64,000 nt of DNA from a virus. Location of the stretch: positions 1-64,000 of the IMG/VR virus record IMGVR_UViG_3300032294_002877; one strand, written 5' to 3'. The position numbers were made by a program, and so were the translations under genes. This document shows positions 17,390 through 57,538 of the stretch, piece after piece (the first letter of the stretch is position 1; each line of letters starts with the position of its first letter). Under the pieces are notes generated by a model. The model was not told the origin of the DNA, did no database searches, and saw only the letters and a program-made list of their open reading frames with translations.

Positions 17390-17429
17390 CAATTCAAACT
17401 GGACTATGCCAGTATAAAGAGATTTTAGG

Positions 17430-17643
17430 CATAGTGCGGCGGGATTCGTCCCGCGTAATGAGAGTTCGTTGCAGACCTAGGTGCAGCCTAGAGAGGGATT
17501 TAACCAATCCTATAAGACGGGTGGTTCCGTCGAAAGTTGTTGCTCTCTAGAGTTTTATTACTAATATAGATGGTACAACAACGCCAGCAAACCGATAGAC
17601 GCTGACGAGCCCCGGCGGTAGCACCGTCCGGGCTATCGGTCTA
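17430..17643 (+). ncRNA. Putative novel structured RNA with pseudoknot
   Basis: No open frame. Visible pairings: GCGGGA-TTCG-TCCCGC (17439-17454); CTAGAGAG (17488-17495) with CTCTCTAG (17543-17550), enclosing hairpins GGATT/AATCC and GACGG/CCGTC; GTTGTTG (17536-17542) with CAACAAC (17576-17582), which crosses the previous helix and so forms a pseudoknot; and ACCGATAG (17591-17598) with CTATCGGT (17633-17640) enclosing a GC-rich arm. It ends directly before tRNA-Arg. I recognise no known family. Confidence 0.6.
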
Positions 17644-46785: not shown

Positions 46786-47139
46786 GGGGGTATAATAGAT
46801 TCGACTACATAATGGAGATTATATTAGCAAGTAGTGGTTGATCGACAGGCCACTATAAAAGTCGATTAAACGCTTTAACTGGCGAAACTCAGTTAGCCCT
46901 TGCTGCTTAATTAAATAACAGCAACAATCTTAGGAAGCGATGAAGGTAGCGTCCAAAAGATTGTCGTAAAATCCTTCGGCTCCTGTTAGTGGTGACGGTT
47001 AACAGGCTAAGATGTGTCACTAGGATTGATGACTGTTGTTCATTCTTTAATCAAATCCGAATGTTTATGAATGAACTAAACTTGTAGAAGATATTTTCAA
47101 ATTTATGCTAGGACACGGGTGCAAATCCCGTTACCTCCA
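46786..47139 (+). ncRNA. ssrA: tmRNA (transfer-messenger RNA)
   Basis: Acceptor GGGGGTA (46786-46792) pairs with TACCTCC (47132-47138), with A73 and a G3-U70 wobble, the alanine identity element. TTCGAC follows near the 5' end and a T-arm ACGGG-TGCAAAT-CCCGT near the 3' end. The resume codon is GCT at 46872 and the tag frame reads ALTGETQLALAA then TAA at 46908-46910; the LALAA end is the usual protease-recognition tail. Length 354 nt; CCA not encoded. Transcribed with tRNA-Ile, 20 nt upstream. It would rescue stalled ribosomes and tag incomplete proteins. Confidence 0.95.
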
Positions 47140-47142
47140 CTT

Positions 47143-47283
47143 ATGAGTTTCTGGAAAAAGGTATTCAAGAAGTATAAGAAAGAAAAGAAACAAGATTTAG
47201 AAAGTCTTGTAGAGGATAAGTATTTTCAAAAATTACAAAAGAAACTGAGCAAACATAACACTAAACATAAAAAGAAAAAATGA
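47143..47283 (+). CDS. Lys-rich small protein
   Basis: 46 residues, 40% Lys, helical (MSFWKKVFKKYKKEKKQDLE). Starts four bases after the tmRNA 3' end and overlaps the next gene by ATGA. Confidence 0.55.
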   Translation: MSFWKKVFKKYKKEKKQDLESLVEDKYFQKLQKKLSKHNTKHKKKK

Positions 47284-49163
47284 TAGATAAAATTAAGGCG
47301 ATATTATCTTCACAAGAGTGTGAGTATTTTAGTATTGCTTTTCTTTATCATTGTATAGTTATAGGTTTGTTAGCCTTTTGTTTTGTTGCTATTGATAGGC
47401 CAGAAAAAGTATTTAGTATTATCATTCAGAATGATGATGTTGTAATTGATACTGAGACTTTTACAGAACCGGAGATCACCAACTTCGATCCTACACAAAC
47501 ATCTTTTGAAGATTCTCCAATCGTTCCGTCTAATGAATCTTCACTATCTGTAGACAATAAAATTGACGTTCCTTCTACTGTGGAATTATCCAATTTGGAA
47601 ATTAGCGAGCCGGATTTTATAGGATCAAACTCTGGAGATATTTTAGCGGGTGTTGGGAAGTTGATCGGCAAAGGAATATCGGCAGAACAAAATACTGGTG
47701 GTGCGTTAGATAGATTAACGGCAGAAATTGTTAGCAATGCGTCCGATAAAAATTTGAATGTGTTATGGCTATTAGACGCCTCAATTAGTTTATCTCATCA
47801 ACGACAAGATATTAGAGAAAGATTCGACAAGATTCTATCCGAGATTAGTTTTAGCCAAAATACAAGTCATACCATTAACCATGGTATTTTTAGTTTTGGT
47901 CTTTCTCATAATAAGTTGTGTGATTTTACTAGCGATGCTAATGTTCTCAAGGACAGTTTTGCATCCATAGTTTTAGATACTTCTGGCACAGAGAATATCT
48001 TTCAAACTATTCTTGAATTATCTAATACTTATGGCAAAAAAGATCCACGATTGATGATCGTGGTTTTCACTGATGAAATAGGTGATGATGTAGATTATCT
48101 AGACAGAGCGGCAGTATCATCCCGTAAAAAAGGAACTATGGTTTATGTTGTAGGAAGCCCAGCACCTTTTGGCAAAAGCAAAACACAATTCAAGTACGTC
48201 GATCCCGATCCTAATTATGATCAAAGCGAAAAGTGGGTAGAGATTCAGCAGGGGCCGGAAACCTTATACCCAATGATTCTAGACATTCATGCCTTACCAA
48301 TTGACGAACAAACACTAGACAGCGGGTATGGGCCGTTTGCTTTGTGTTCATTGTGTTCAGAAACCGGAGGAATATTTTTCAGCGTTCATCCTAACAGATC
48401 GTCATCGGTTCTATCTAAGAAAGATATTAGTCCACTAGCCTCTAACATCTCTAAGTTTTTTGATACTGATGTAATGAGAAGTTACAGCCCAGATTATAGA
48501 TCATTTGCATTACAGGCCAAGGAAAATCAAACCCACAGAATAAAGAACGCTTTAGTACAAGCAGCATCTACGAAACTAGATATTCGTGGAGAACAAACGC
48601 TAAAGTTTAATGCTTTTACAGAAGGGGATTTTGTAAACGAATTAGGCAAAGCACAAAGATTCTCTGCTAAAATAGAACCTAAAATTAATCAGATACTAAC
48701 CACGCTACAGAATACAGAGAAAGAATTTGATACTCTAAAGGACAAAAGATGGAAAGCGTCATATGCTTTGGCTATGGGAAGGATATTAGCCACAAAAACA
48801 AGAATTGAATTTTATAACCAAGTATTAGCAGAAGCAAAAACTGGTCTAAAAAAGAAAGACCAAAAGAGTAATGTTTGGGTATTAAATCATACGGATAAGT
48901 TTGCTACTACTAATAGTCAACTTAATAAAAACTACAAACAAGCACGGTATTATCTAAATTATGTAATTGATACATATCCAGATACTCCTTGGGCCTATAT
49001 TGCTAACGAGGAAATAAAAACTCCTTTTGGATACGAATGGACTGAGAGTTATATTGAGCCACCAAAAATGGGTGGCGGAGGTAATAACAATCCTAATCCT
49101 CCAAAGGATGATACAATCAAAAAATTACAACCTAAACCACAAAGAAAGATAGAAAAAATATGA
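47280..49163 (+). CDS. Membrane-anchored von Willebrand factor A protein
   Basis: 627 residues. One transmembrane helix (about 20-42: FLYHCIVIGLLAFCFVAIDR), then a disordered acidic linker, then a VWA domain whose MIDAS is DASIS (NVLWLLDASISLS, about 160-172) with the later metal loop around FTDEIGDD. The C-terminal 200 residues are helical (KINQILTTLQNTEKEFDTLK) and end in a Pro/Gly/Lys-rich tail. The layout resembles VWA proteins of planctomycetes. Overlaps the DUF1501 gene by 4 bp, so they are probably made and act together. Confidence 0.8.
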   Translation: MIDKIKAILSSQECEYFSIAFLYHCIVIGLLAFCFVAIDRPEKVFSIIIQNDDVVIDTETFTEPEITNFDPTQTSFEDSPIVPSNESSLSVDNKIDVPSTVELSNLEISEPDFIGSNSGDILAGVGKLIGKGISAEQNTGGALDRLTAEIVSNASDKNLNVLWLLDASISLSHQRQDIRERFDKILSEISFSQNTSHTINHGIFSFGLSHNKLCDFTSDANVLKDSFASIVLDTSGTENIFQTILELSNTYGKKDPRLMIVVFTDEIGDDVDYLDRAAVSSRKKGTMVYVVGSPAPFGKSKTQFKYVDPDPNYDQSEKWVEIQQGPETLYPMILDIHALPIDEQTLDSGYGPFALCSLCSETGGIFFSVHPNRSSSVLSKKDISPLASNISKFFDTDVMRSYSPDYRSFALQAKENQTHRIKNALVQAASTKLDIRGEQTLKFNAFTEGDFVNELGKAQRFSAKIEPKINQILTTLQNTEKEFDTLKDKRWKASYALAMGRILATKTRIEFYNQVLAEAKTGLKKKDQKSNVWVLNHTDKFATTNSQLNKNYKQARYYLNYVIDTYPDTPWAYIANEEIKTPFGYEWTESYIEPPKMGGGGNNNPNPPKDDTIKKLQPKPQRKIEKI

Positions 49164-50404
49164 ATCGCAGACATTTCCTTAGCCATCTCGCTGGTGCTGC
49201 CGCATTATCATCTCCAGCAATCGACTTTACTAATACTATTCTAGCAAATGCTAACGATCTTAAAAAGGAACATAAGAGTGCTATTCTTTTGTGGATGGGT
49301 GGTGGCCCAAGCACAATGGATATATGGGATTTAAAGCCCGGTACTCCTACTGGTGGCCCTTTTAAACCTATTAGCACAAGTGCTGACGGTATTCAAATCT
49401 GCGAACATATGCCACTCATGGCAAAACAAATGCATCATATGAATATTGTGCGTAGTATGAGTACCAGAGAAGCAGATCATATGAGAGGTCGCTATTATAT
49501 GCACACAGGATATGTTCCAACACCAACAATTGAACATCCTAGTTATGGTGCTGTCGTTGCTCATGAATTAATTAGCGATGTTCCACAACTAGAAATTCCA
49601 CCATTTATTAGTGTTGGTGGAGGTAGTGTTGGGCCAGGATTTTTAGGTATGACTTATGCTCCTTTCGTTGTTAATTCAAATGGAAATGTTCGTGATTTAA
49701 GTATGGGTGTAGACGATGCTATTCTAAATCAAAGACTACAAATGCTTAGAACAATTGAGGATAGATTCATATCTGAAAAACGAGGATCAACATCAATAGA
49801 CCATGATAAAGTCTTAAACAAGACACTAAAACTTATGACCAGCAAACAAATGGACGCTTTAAAGGTAGCCAAAGAACCAGAAGAAGTTCGTGAGCGTTAT
49901 GGTAATACTGGTTTTGGGCGAGGTTGTCTAATGGCCCGCAGATTAGTAGAGACAGGTGTTCCATTTATCGAGGTTGATTTAGGTGGCTGGGATAATCATG
50001 CTAATATTTTTCCAACATTACAGGACACTAAACTTCCAGAATTAGACAAGGCTATGAGTGCTTTGATTAGTGATCTACATGATCGTGGATTGCTAGAAAC
50101 TACTGCTATTATATGGATGGGTGAATTTAGTCGCACACCAAATATTAATGGCAATACTGGTCGTGATCATTGGGCTAGAAGTTGGAGTGTAGTCGTTGGT
50201 GGTGCTGGTTTTAATAAGGGTATTGTTGTTGGCGAAACAAGCAGCGACGGTAAAGAAGTAATCACCGAACCATATAGTTCACAAGACTTAATGGCTAGTG
50301 TTTTAAAATCCTTAGATATTTCACTGGAAACAACATTTACCTCAAAAAATGGTCGTCCAATGAAGATAGCAAATTCCGGCAAAGTTATCAAAGAATTATT
50401 CTGA
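49160..50404 (+). CDS. DUF1501 protein, Tat-exported, copy 1
   Basis: 414 residues. Tat signal NRRHFLSHLAGAAALSS. ILLWMGGGPSTMDIWDLKPG, SMSTREADHMRGRYYMHTGY, VDLGGWDNHANIF and GEFSRTPNINGNTGRDHW are the DUF1501 blocks (alkaline-phosphatase/sulfatase-like fold), with His and Asp placed as metal ligands. DUF1501 proteins are greatly expanded in planctomycetes; biochemical role not established. Coupled to the VWA gene upstream and to the nuclease gene downstream. Confidence 0.9.
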   Translation: MNRRHFLSHLAGAAALSSPAIDFTNTILANANDLKKEHKSAILLWMGGGPSTMDIWDLKPGTPTGGPFKPISTSADGIQICEHMPLMAKQMHHMNIVRSMSTREADHMRGRYYMHTGYVPTPTIEHPSYGAVVAHELISDVPQLEIPPFISVGGGSVGPGFLGMTYAPFVVNSNGNVRDLSMGVDDAILNQRLQMLRTIEDRFISEKRGSTSIDHDKVLNKTLKLMTSKQMDALKVAKEPEEVRERYGNTGFGRGCLMARRLVETGVPFIEVDLGGWDNHANIFPTLQDTKLPELDKAMSALISDLHDRGLLETTAIIWMGEFSRTPNINGNTGRDHWARSWSVVVGGAGFNKGIVVGETSSDGKEVITEPYSSQDLMASVLKSLDISLETTFTSKNGRPMKIANSGKVIKELF

Positions 50405-54145: not shown

Positions 54146-55387
54146 ATGAAACATTCACGCCGAAAATTTACTCTAGGACTAACATCATTAGGTCTTACCG
54201 CTTTTTCTTCTAATATTGCTTTTAGTGTTGAAGAAAATATTCCCAAATGCGATCACAATAACAATAGCGTTATTTACTTGTTTTTAAGTGGTGGCCCAAC
54301 ACATATAGAAACTTTTAATCCAATCCCAAACGCTACATCAGATAGAAAATCTGTTATTGGCGACAGAGCAACAAAAACTCCGGGGTTTGGTATAGGTGGA
54401 TTATGGGAAAAAATATCAACAGTTTCGGATAAATTTTGTGTTGTGAATAGTTTTCATCATAGTGATCCTAACCATGAGAGTGCTGTTCATTGGATGATGA
54501 CCGGAGAAAGAAACGTACCAAATGCTGCACAGAAGTGGCCCAGTTTTGGTAGTGTAGTAGTTGGGCAGTATGGTACGAATATTGATTCTGGTTTGCCGAC
54601 ATACGTTAAACTAAATCCAATACAGCATGACGGTGCATCATGGATGGGTAGTAAATACATGGGTTATGGTGCTTCTGGAGAAGGCGTCAAAGATTTGATG
54701 CTGAAACAAAAAGATCGTTTTGAAAACAGAGCAAATATTCTAAAAACTCTGGATCATTCTCCGGTATTTAAAAGCAACGACACTGCTAGTAAAAACTGGA
54801 TAGAATTACGAAATCAAGCCATTAATGTTCTCTTGGGAACCGCCAACGAGGCTTTTCTAGTAGACAAAGATCCAGAATACGATACTTATAAAAAGGATCA
54901 ATTAGGTAAAGACTTACTAACAGCAATACGATTAGTCGAGCGTGGAGTAAAGTTTGTTACCATAAATTATGGTGGTTGGGATATGCATCAAAATATTAAT
55001 CAGGGCTTGAACAAACTAATTCCTCCATTAGATAATTATCTATATCATTATTTTAATTCAGCACAAAGAAGGGAGATAAATAAGAGGAATATGCTAGTGA
55101 TGACCGGGGATTTTGGACGAACCCCAAAGGTTAATAAAGATGCTGGCAGGGATCATTGGCCTCATCTGGTTCCCTTATTCATCGCCAGCGACAGTTATGA
55201 AATGGGAAGGGTGATCGGTAAGTCTGATTTAAACGCGGAGCGTCCAGACGTTGATCCATATGAACCAGAAGATTTAAAGTGGACTATCTTGAATCATATG
55301 GGAGTCAATAAAAACGCTAACTGGACTAGTATTGAGCAAAGACCTATGATATTTGTGAAAGACACTGCAAAAAATATCCTAGTCTAA
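54146..55387 (+). CDS. DUF1501 protein, Tat-exported, copy 2
   Basis: 413 residues. Tat motif SRRKFTLGLTSLGL. Core blocks VIYLFLSGGPTHIETFNPIP, NHESAVHWMMTG, VTINYGGWDMHQNI and GDFGRTPKVNKDAGRDHWP match DUF1501. Only moderately similar to the copy at 49160, so not a recent duplication. Stands alone behind AAAGGAAG. Confidence 0.9.
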   Translation: MKHSRRKFTLGLTSLGLTAFSSNIAFSVEENIPKCDHNNNSVIYLFLSGGPTHIETFNPIPNATSDRKSVIGDRATKTPGFGIGGLWEKISTVSDKFCVVNSFHHSDPNHESAVHWMMTGERNVPNAAQKWPSFGSVVVGQYGTNIDSGLPTYVKLNPIQHDGASWMGSKYMGYGASGEGVKDLMLKQKDRFENRANILKTLDHSPVFKSNDTASKNWIELRNQAINVLLGTANEAFLVDKDPEYDTYKKDQLGKDLLTAIRLVERGVKFVTINYGGWDMHQNINQGLNKLIPPLDNYLYHYFNSAQRREINKRNMLVMTGDFGRTPKVNKDAGRDHWPHLVPLFIASDSYEMGRVIGKSDLNAERPDVDPYEPEDLKWTILNHMGVNKNANWTSIEQRPMIFVKDTAKNILV

Positions 55388-56708: not shown

Positions 56709-57000
56709 GGTCTTTTGGCGGAATAGGCAGACGCAACGGACTTTAGTTAATAAAATTGGAGTGCTTAAAGGGAAACTTTTAAAGTAGAACCTGTCAAAGT
56801 CGGTGAAACCTGTAAAATGGCAATACCGAACCAAACCTAATTATTAGGAAGGCGTAGAGACTTGACGGCAGGAGCCTGTGATATAAAATATTATGGCTAA
56901 GGTAAAGTCCAGACCACAAACCGAAAGGGTAACGAAAGTTATAGTGGTAAGAAAATCCGTTGGGAGTAATCCCGTGTGGGTTCAAGTCCCACAAAGACCA
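56709..57000 (+). tRNA. tRNA-Leu(UAA) interrupted by a group I intron
   Basis: Exon 1 56709-56743 and exon 2 56952-57000. Acceptor GGTCTTT/AAAGACC, anticodon stem ACGGA/TCCGT; spliced loop CTTAAAA gives UAA, and the variable arm is long as in Leu. The intron splits the anticodon after U34, the site used by cyanobacterial and plastid tRNA-Leu(UAA) introns. Confidence 0.92.
56744..56951 (+). other. Group I intron
   Basis: 208 nt, ending in G. Exon end ACTT pairs with internal GAGT (near 56759) giving the U-G pair at the 5' splice site. AAGGTAAAGTCC at 56899-56910 corresponds to the conserved S element, and GACTTGACGGCAGG to the P7 region. Small and free of an open frame; self-splicing expected. 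Confidence 0.88.
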
Positions 57001-57073: not shown

Positions 57074-57538
57074 ATGAAAAAATGTCGTAAATGTCAAAAA
57101 GAATTTCCAAATAGAGTTAAAATTAACGGGGCAATTAAGGTTATCAATAGGAGAAAATATTGTTTAGAATGTTCTCCTTTTGGAGAAAGGAATACCAGAA
57201 AACTTCACTTGCCTCAGAGAGATAAAAATACTACCAAAAATTGTCCTCAATGCGGTAAAGATTTTAAGTGGAATAAGAACAATATTTGTTGGACTTGCAG
57301 ATCATTTAATAGAAGACAACTAAATAGAGGAAAAGGTATCAAATATCTAGGATCAAAATGTAAGAAATGCAAAACTAAGGATACTGAGGTTTTAACATTT
57401 CATCATTTAGATAGAAATAATAAATACGATAATCTATCCAGCCTTTGGCATCGTGAGTGGGATATAATTAAATCAGAATTAGATAAGTGCGAATTGCTTT
57501 GTGCTAATTGTCATATGAAACTTCATAAAAGGAAATAA
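57074..57538 (+). CDS. HNH endonuclease
   Basis: 154 residues with two N-terminal zinc knuckles (CRKCQKEF...CLEC; CPQCGKDF...CWTC) and C-terminal CKKCKTKDTEVLTFHHLD then CELLCANCHMKLH, the HNH core. Located 74 bp after the intron-bearing tRNA; may be the mobility enzyme of that intron or simply a free-standing homing nuclease. Confidence 0.88.
   Translation: MKKCRKCQKEFPNRVKINGAIKVINRRKYCLECSPFGERNTRKLHLPQRDKNTTKNCPQCGKDFKWNKNNICWTCRSFNRRQLNRGKGIKYLGSKCKKCKTKDTEVLTFHHLDRNNKYDNLSSLWHREWDIIKSELDKCELLCANCHMKLHKRK

What the first reader, a model, noticed from the sequence alone, without database searches (positions are those of the whole stretch)
56709..57000. Group I intron in the anticodon of a phage tRNA-Leu(UAA)
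The intron interrupts the anticodon after U34, the position of the ancient cyanobacterial/plastid tRNA-Leu intron, with P1, S-element and terminal G visible. Its presence in a probable planctomycete phage suggests either convergence or virus-mediated spread. An HNH endonuclease gene begins 74 bp downstream.
Basis: partly seen in the sequence, partly recalled or inferred. Interest (0 to 1): 0.75.

Follow-up and report, generated by a model that had tools for sequence, protein, structure and literature searches.

The report
Self-splicing intron in phage tRNA-Leu gene
A bacterial virus carries a leucine tRNA gene split in its anticodon by a small self-splicing RNA of the kind known from cyanobacteria and chloroplasts, and the same kind of intron turns up in tRNA genes of many other phages, forming a mostly viral branch of the family rather than a recent loan from cyanobacteria.

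Summary
Window 56709-57000 is a tRNA-Leu(UAA) gene interrupted after U34 by a 208-nt group I intron (56744-56951). The splice sites are fixed by an intronless allele of the same locus (L011). Rfam Intron_gpI gives 44.1 bits, E=3.7e-10 (below the 50-bit gathering cut-off). P1-P9 with the P3/P7 pseudoknot are supported by 36 sequences: 96.7% of cells paired, 32 pairs changed on both sides. It aligns with bacterial tRNA anticodon (IC3-type) introns. A capped scan plus neighbours gave 102 intron-bearing tRNA calls in viral sequence, mostly Leu(UAA); one 251-kb virus has four, in four different tRNA genes. The window intron lies in a mostly viral clade (85-97% identity to its nearest phage relatives; 72% or less to bacterial introns sampled). 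Cyanobacterial Leu introns form their own clade; recent capture from a cyanobacterium is excluded in the sample, deep common origin is not. The HNH gene 74 bp downstream is tied to the tRNA, not the intron: close homologues sit 68-77 bp behind tRNA(UAA) with and without intron. The planctomycete host is untested. A 2014 review knew phage introns only in protein genes; I found no later report in the open-access library held.

The parts
56709..56743 (+). 5' exon of tRNA-Leu(UAA), ending CTT (C32 U33 U34)
   Evidence: ARAGORN with introns; empty-site comparison with L011
56744..56951 (+). group I (IC3-type) intron, 208 nt, ending in G
   Evidence: Rfam RF00028 44.1 bits; precise absence in L011; covariation
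56741..56761 (+). P1: exon CUU (56741-56743) with internal guide GAG (56759-56761), U.G at the 5' splice site
   Evidence: invariant in 36 aligned introns
56765..56782 (+). P2 hairpin, 7 bp with GAAA loop
   Evidence: all 7 pairs show changes on both sides
56790..56872 (+). P3 (56790-56795 with 56867-56872), pseudoknotted with P7
   Evidence: 5 of 6 pairs change on both sides, 100% of cells paired
56800..56829 (+). P4 (56800-56804/56825-56829) and P5 (56809-56810/56819-56820)
   Evidence: 99.4% and 98.6% of cells paired
56831..56852 (+). P6 and P6a
   Evidence: P6 invariant; all 5 P6a pairs change on both sides
56859..56909 (+). P7 (56859-56862 with 56906-56909), guanosine-binding helix; S element 56899-56910
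   Evidence: invariant in 36 sequences; role by homology to group I introns
56873..56898 (+). P8 (56873-56876 with 56895-56898)
   Evidence: 3 of 4 pairs change on both sides
56913..56948 (+). P9 with P9a/P9b hairpins
   Evidence: P9 95.6% and P9b 100% of cells paired; P9a weaker (88.9% and 73.5%)
56952..57000 (+). 3' exon of tRNA-Leu(UAA), starting AAAATCC; no CCA encoded
57074..57538 (+). HNH endonuclease ORF, 154 aa; linked to the tRNA gene, not specifically to the intron
   Evidence: PHROG 2255 E 1.7e-30; position conserved with and without intron

Best explanation
A phage tRNA-Leu(UAA) gene carries a minimal, ORF-less group I intron of the IC3 kind. After transcription the RNA most likely folds (P1-P9), binds a guanosine in P7, cleaves after U34 at the U.G pair of P1, and joins U34 to A35, giving a normal tRNA-Leu that reads UUA. 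Shown: gene, exact boundaries, conserved covarying fold, intronless alleles. Inferred: splicing activity, charging, use of the tRNA. The intron belongs to a mostly phage lineage found in several tRNA genes (Leu, Arg, Gln, CAU, Lys and others). Because it has no ORF, its movement is inferred to rely on recombination between co-infecting phages, perhaps helped by endonucleases cutting near tRNA genes, or on reverse splicing. The HNH neighbour is a free-standing, tRNA-linked endonuclease that probably favours inheritance of the tRNA locus, carrying the intron along when present.
For: Boundaries and fold. Same splice site CTT|...G|AAAATC in dozens of viral and bacterial introns. Phage lineage: best bacterial identity 71.6%; 64-row clade, 61 viral, SH-aLRT 97; 24 viral Leu introns with 5 bacterial ones, 99/99. 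No close cyanobacterial match in 292 genomes (best 70% over about 140 nt). Mobility: four introns in four tRNA genes of one virus, three of them 81-86% identical to each other; intron-bearing contig L061 against isolate S-TIM5, which carries the uninterrupted tRNA-Leu; at least 3 changes of intron state on the HNH tree.
Against: No splicing data. The Rfam score is below the gathering threshold. The alignment has only about 200 columns; the AU test does not reject a window+cyanobacteria clade (p 0.138) nor a single viral Leu clade (p 0.221). A few bacterial introns fall inside the viral clade.
Confidence: 0.9

Rival explanations
1. Recent capture of a cyanobacterial tRNA-Leu gene with its intron by the phage.
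For: Same tRNA, same insertion point, same IC3-type core; AU test does not reject a window+cyanobacteria clade (p 0.138).
Against: Cyanobacterial Leu introns form their own clade (100/100) on a long stem with no phage inside; best match in 292 cyanobacterial genomes 70% over about 140 nt against 97% and 85% for phage introns. L061-type contigs, whose exons match cyanophage tRNA-Leu, carry introns of the viral clade.
Confidence: 0.03
2. A mobile intron whose own homing endonuclease is the HNH protein 74 bp downstream (intron and HNH travelling as one unit).
For: Tight adjacency in the window and close relatives; the tRNA-Leu intron of a 595-kb phage does contain an HNH-like ORF.
Against: The same HNH sits at the same place behind intronless tRNA-Leu in 10 relatives; distant homologues sit beside other tRNA genes; only 19 of 101 viral intron-bearing tRNA calls have an HNH of this family within 1.5 kb, several of them fetched through the HNH search itself.
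Confidence: 0.12
3. A degenerate intron that no longer splices, leaving a dead tRNA gene.
For: Score below Rfam gathering cut-off.
Against: All core helices intact, catalytic-core positions invariant, exons still pair into a regular tRNA.
Confidence: 0.05
4. Independent origin (convergence) of an intron at the same tRNA position.
For: IC3-type introns at several other tRNA sites show that anticodon loops are repeated targets.
Against: Full-length homology with other tRNA-Leu(UAA) introns at the same site. Separate re-insertions of one intron family into tRNA-Leu in different lineages remain possible.
Confidence: 0.05

Closest known systems
Cyanobacterial/plastid tRNA-Leu(UAA) group IC3 intron
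   Same: Same gene, same insertion after U34, same P1-P9 layout and terminal G
   Different: Separate clade; the phage intron is closest to other phage introns
Proteobacterial IC3 introns in tRNA-Ile(CAU) and tRNA-Arg(CCU) (Azoarcus and Agrobacterium types, named from general knowledge)
   Same: Alignable core, similar length, anticodon-loop insertion
   Different: Other tRNA, other exon/guide pairing, cellular genome
Phage group I introns in protein genes (T4 td, SPO1, Twort types)
   Same: Group I intron in a phage
   Different: Those lie in coding genes and often carry homing endonucleases; this one is in a tRNA gene and carries none
T4 SegB free-standing homing endonuclease
   Same: Endonuclease gene tied to a phage tRNA region (title of the 2008 paper in the reference list read)
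   Different: SegB is known as a GIY-YIG enzyme (general knowledge); this one is HNH, and its target is unknown

Membership tests
Group I introns | Conserved P3-P8 core with P3/P7 pseudoknot | tested here: met
Group I introns | U.G pair at the 5' splice site and terminal G | tested here: met
Group I introns | Guanosine-initiated self-splicing | not testable with these tools
   needs in vitro transcription
Subgroup IC3 tRNA introns | Insertion in a tRNA anticodon loop | tested here: met
   after U34 of tRNA-Leu(UAA)
Subgroup IC3 tRNA introns | Sequence homology over the core with known bacterial tRNA introns | tested here: met
   alignment and tree with cyanobacterial Leu and proteobacterial Arg and CAU introns
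Subgroup IC3 tRNA introns | Formal subgroup call with a subgroup model | not tested
   only the general Rfam RF00028 model was used
Cyanobacterial tRNA-Leu intron lineage | Placement inside the cyanobacterial clade | tested here: not met
   cyanobacterial rows alone form the clade, 100/100; a sister relation is not excluded (AU p 0.138)
Intron-encoded homing system | Endonuclease ORF inside the intron | tested here: not met
   the intron is 208 nt of structured RNA; the HNH ORF lies outside it
Phage HNH endonucleases | Match to an HNH family model | tested here: met
   PHROG 2255 E 1.7e-30; no Pfam match at E 0.01

The most novel reading that the evidence does not exclude
Phages are a main mobile reservoir of tRNA-type group I introns: one mostly viral lineage spreads among anticodon loops of different phage tRNA genes, several per genome, and has passed introns to bacterial tRNA genes, so part of the patchy bacterial distribution is virus-borne.
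Probability: 0.3. Interest if true: 0.75.

Novelty: new member of a known kind. Interest (0 to 1): 0.55.

Why it matters
A 2014 review states that all phage group I introns known then lay in protein-coding genes despite the many phage tRNA genes (PMC3984707). Here they sit in tRNA anticodons of many phages, including the cultured Agrobacterium phage Atu_ph07, where the fetched annotation shows no tRNA at the place. Default tRNA searches pass over such genes, so phage tRNA repertoires are undercounted. Natural intron-bearing and intronless pairs make the old question of how tRNA introns spread directly testable.

Tried and rejected
HNH as the intron's own endonuclease: rejected, it stays put beside intronless alleles. 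Cyanobacterial capture: disfavoured. Synechococcus phage S-SKS1 as an isolate with the intron: discarded, my query used wrong coordinates for L146 and the hit was in a tail-fibre gene. ARAGORN's 'Tyr(ata)', 'Phe(gaa)' and some 'Ser' labels are misplacements of the intron; by their exons most are Leu(UAA) or another UAA tRNA. AU tests were not decisive. Literature on phage tRNA introns: 10 searches, none found beyond the 2014 statement.

Full report
What is there. Window 56709-57000 is a tRNA-Leu(UAA) gene split by a 208-nt intron at 56744-56951. ARAGORN without introns misses it; with introns allowed it is called exactly, and the spliced product is a regular 85-nt tRNA-Leu. Rfam's Intron_gpI model scores 44.1 bits, E 3.7e-10, just under its 50-bit cut-off; it is the only match in the 180,460-base virus record. 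The boundaries are not a guess: L011, a related viral contig, has the same tRNA and the same HNH gene without the intron, and the two exon halves abut at precisely these positions.

Structure. An alignment of 36 tRNA-Leu introns (viral, proteobacterial, cyanobacterial and others) supports P1-P9 with the P3/P7 pseudoknot: 96.7% of cells paired against 77% in shuffles and at most 48% when slid, 32 pairs with changes on both sides. P1 (CUU with GAG, U.G at the splice site), P6 and P7 are invariant; P2, P3, P6a, P8 and P9b covary; P9a is weaker. The intron has no ORF.

Relatives. With the loci fetched otherwise it gave 138 viral core matches, 102 of them inside an intron-bearing tRNA call, 71 of these with a Leu(UAA)-like signature; the counts include duplicates and are not a census. 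Others are Arg(UCU), Lys(UUU), Asn(GUU), Thr and CAU tRNAs. One 251-kb virus has four introns, in Gln(UUG), CAU, Leu(UAA) and Arg(UCU) genes (the Gln assignment is my reading of the exons, ARAGORN calls it SeC); the Gln, Leu and Arg copies are 81-86% identical over the aligned stretch. Atu_ph07 (cultured) and 735-kb and 595-kb phage genomes have it in tRNA-Leu. In the Atu_ph07 records no tRNA is annotated at the place.

Origin. The window intron is 97% and 85% identical to its nearest phage relatives and at most 71.6% to the bacterial introns sampled. In the 225-row tree it sits in a clade of 64 with 61 viral rows. In a reduced tree the 24 viral Leu introns sit with 5 bacterial ones (99/99) and cyanobacterial introns form their own clade (100/100), but the AU test rejects neither a window+cyanobacteria clade (p 0.138) nor a single viral Leu clade (p 0.221). 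Searches of 292 cyanobacterial genomes and 289 of the class of the Magnetovibrio MAG found no full-length match above 72%. So recent capture is out within this sample; deep relationships and direction of transfer stay open. Cyanophage isolate S-TIM5 carries the uninterrupted form of a tRNA-Leu that is intron-bearing in L061.

The HNH gene. It matches PHROG 2255. In the 16 loci that hold a close homologue with its upstream flank, a tRNA with UAA anticodon lies 68-77 bp upstream, six with intron and ten without; L008/L009, L015/L016 and L012/L013 look like duplicate pairs. More distant homologues mostly sit next to other tRNA genes. Intron state changes at least three times on the HNH tree. It is therefore a tRNA-linked free-standing endonuclease; a role in homing of the tRNA locus is inferred, by analogy with T4 SegB.

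Host. The window has rIIA, DNA ligase, an endonuclease VII-like gene and thymidylate synthase. Two DUF1501 proteins fit a planctomycete link only by general knowledge; the host was not tested.

Literature. The 2014 review (PMC3984707) states that all phage introns then known were in protein genes. Ten searches of the open-access library found no report of phage tRNA group I introns; subscription papers and most preprints are outside it.

Noticed in passing
window 17398-17460: Pistol ribozyme (Rfam RF02679, 52.5 bits) about 185 bp upstream of the tRNA-Arg/Asp/Tyr cluster.
   Followed up: no
window 46786-47142: Phage-encoded tmRNA (101.5 bits), next to a tRNA-Ile.
   Followed up: no
window 49160-50404 and 54146-55387: Two DUF1501 proteins, and a protein with a weak, sub-cut-off VWA-like match (47280-49163), in a phage.
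   Followed up: no
L026-L047: Distant homologues of the HNH protein lie beside many different phage tRNA genes, a general tRNA-linked endonuclease family.
   Followed up: partly
L004 2403-3102: 595-kb phage tRNA-Leu intron of 700 nt containing a 189-aa HNH-like ORF.
   Followed up: partly
L307-L310 (G009): One 251-kb virus with four group I introns in four different tRNA genes.
   Followed up: partly
L005 3001-3078, L006 3001-3078: Related intron core between two annotated capsid-protein ORFs in marine phages (HTVC120P and KM23-C739), suggesting a split capsid gene.
   Followed up: no
L010, L014, L019, L023: Short (74-77 nt) tRNAs with UAA anticodon lacking the long variable arm typical of tRNA-Leu.
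   Followed up: no
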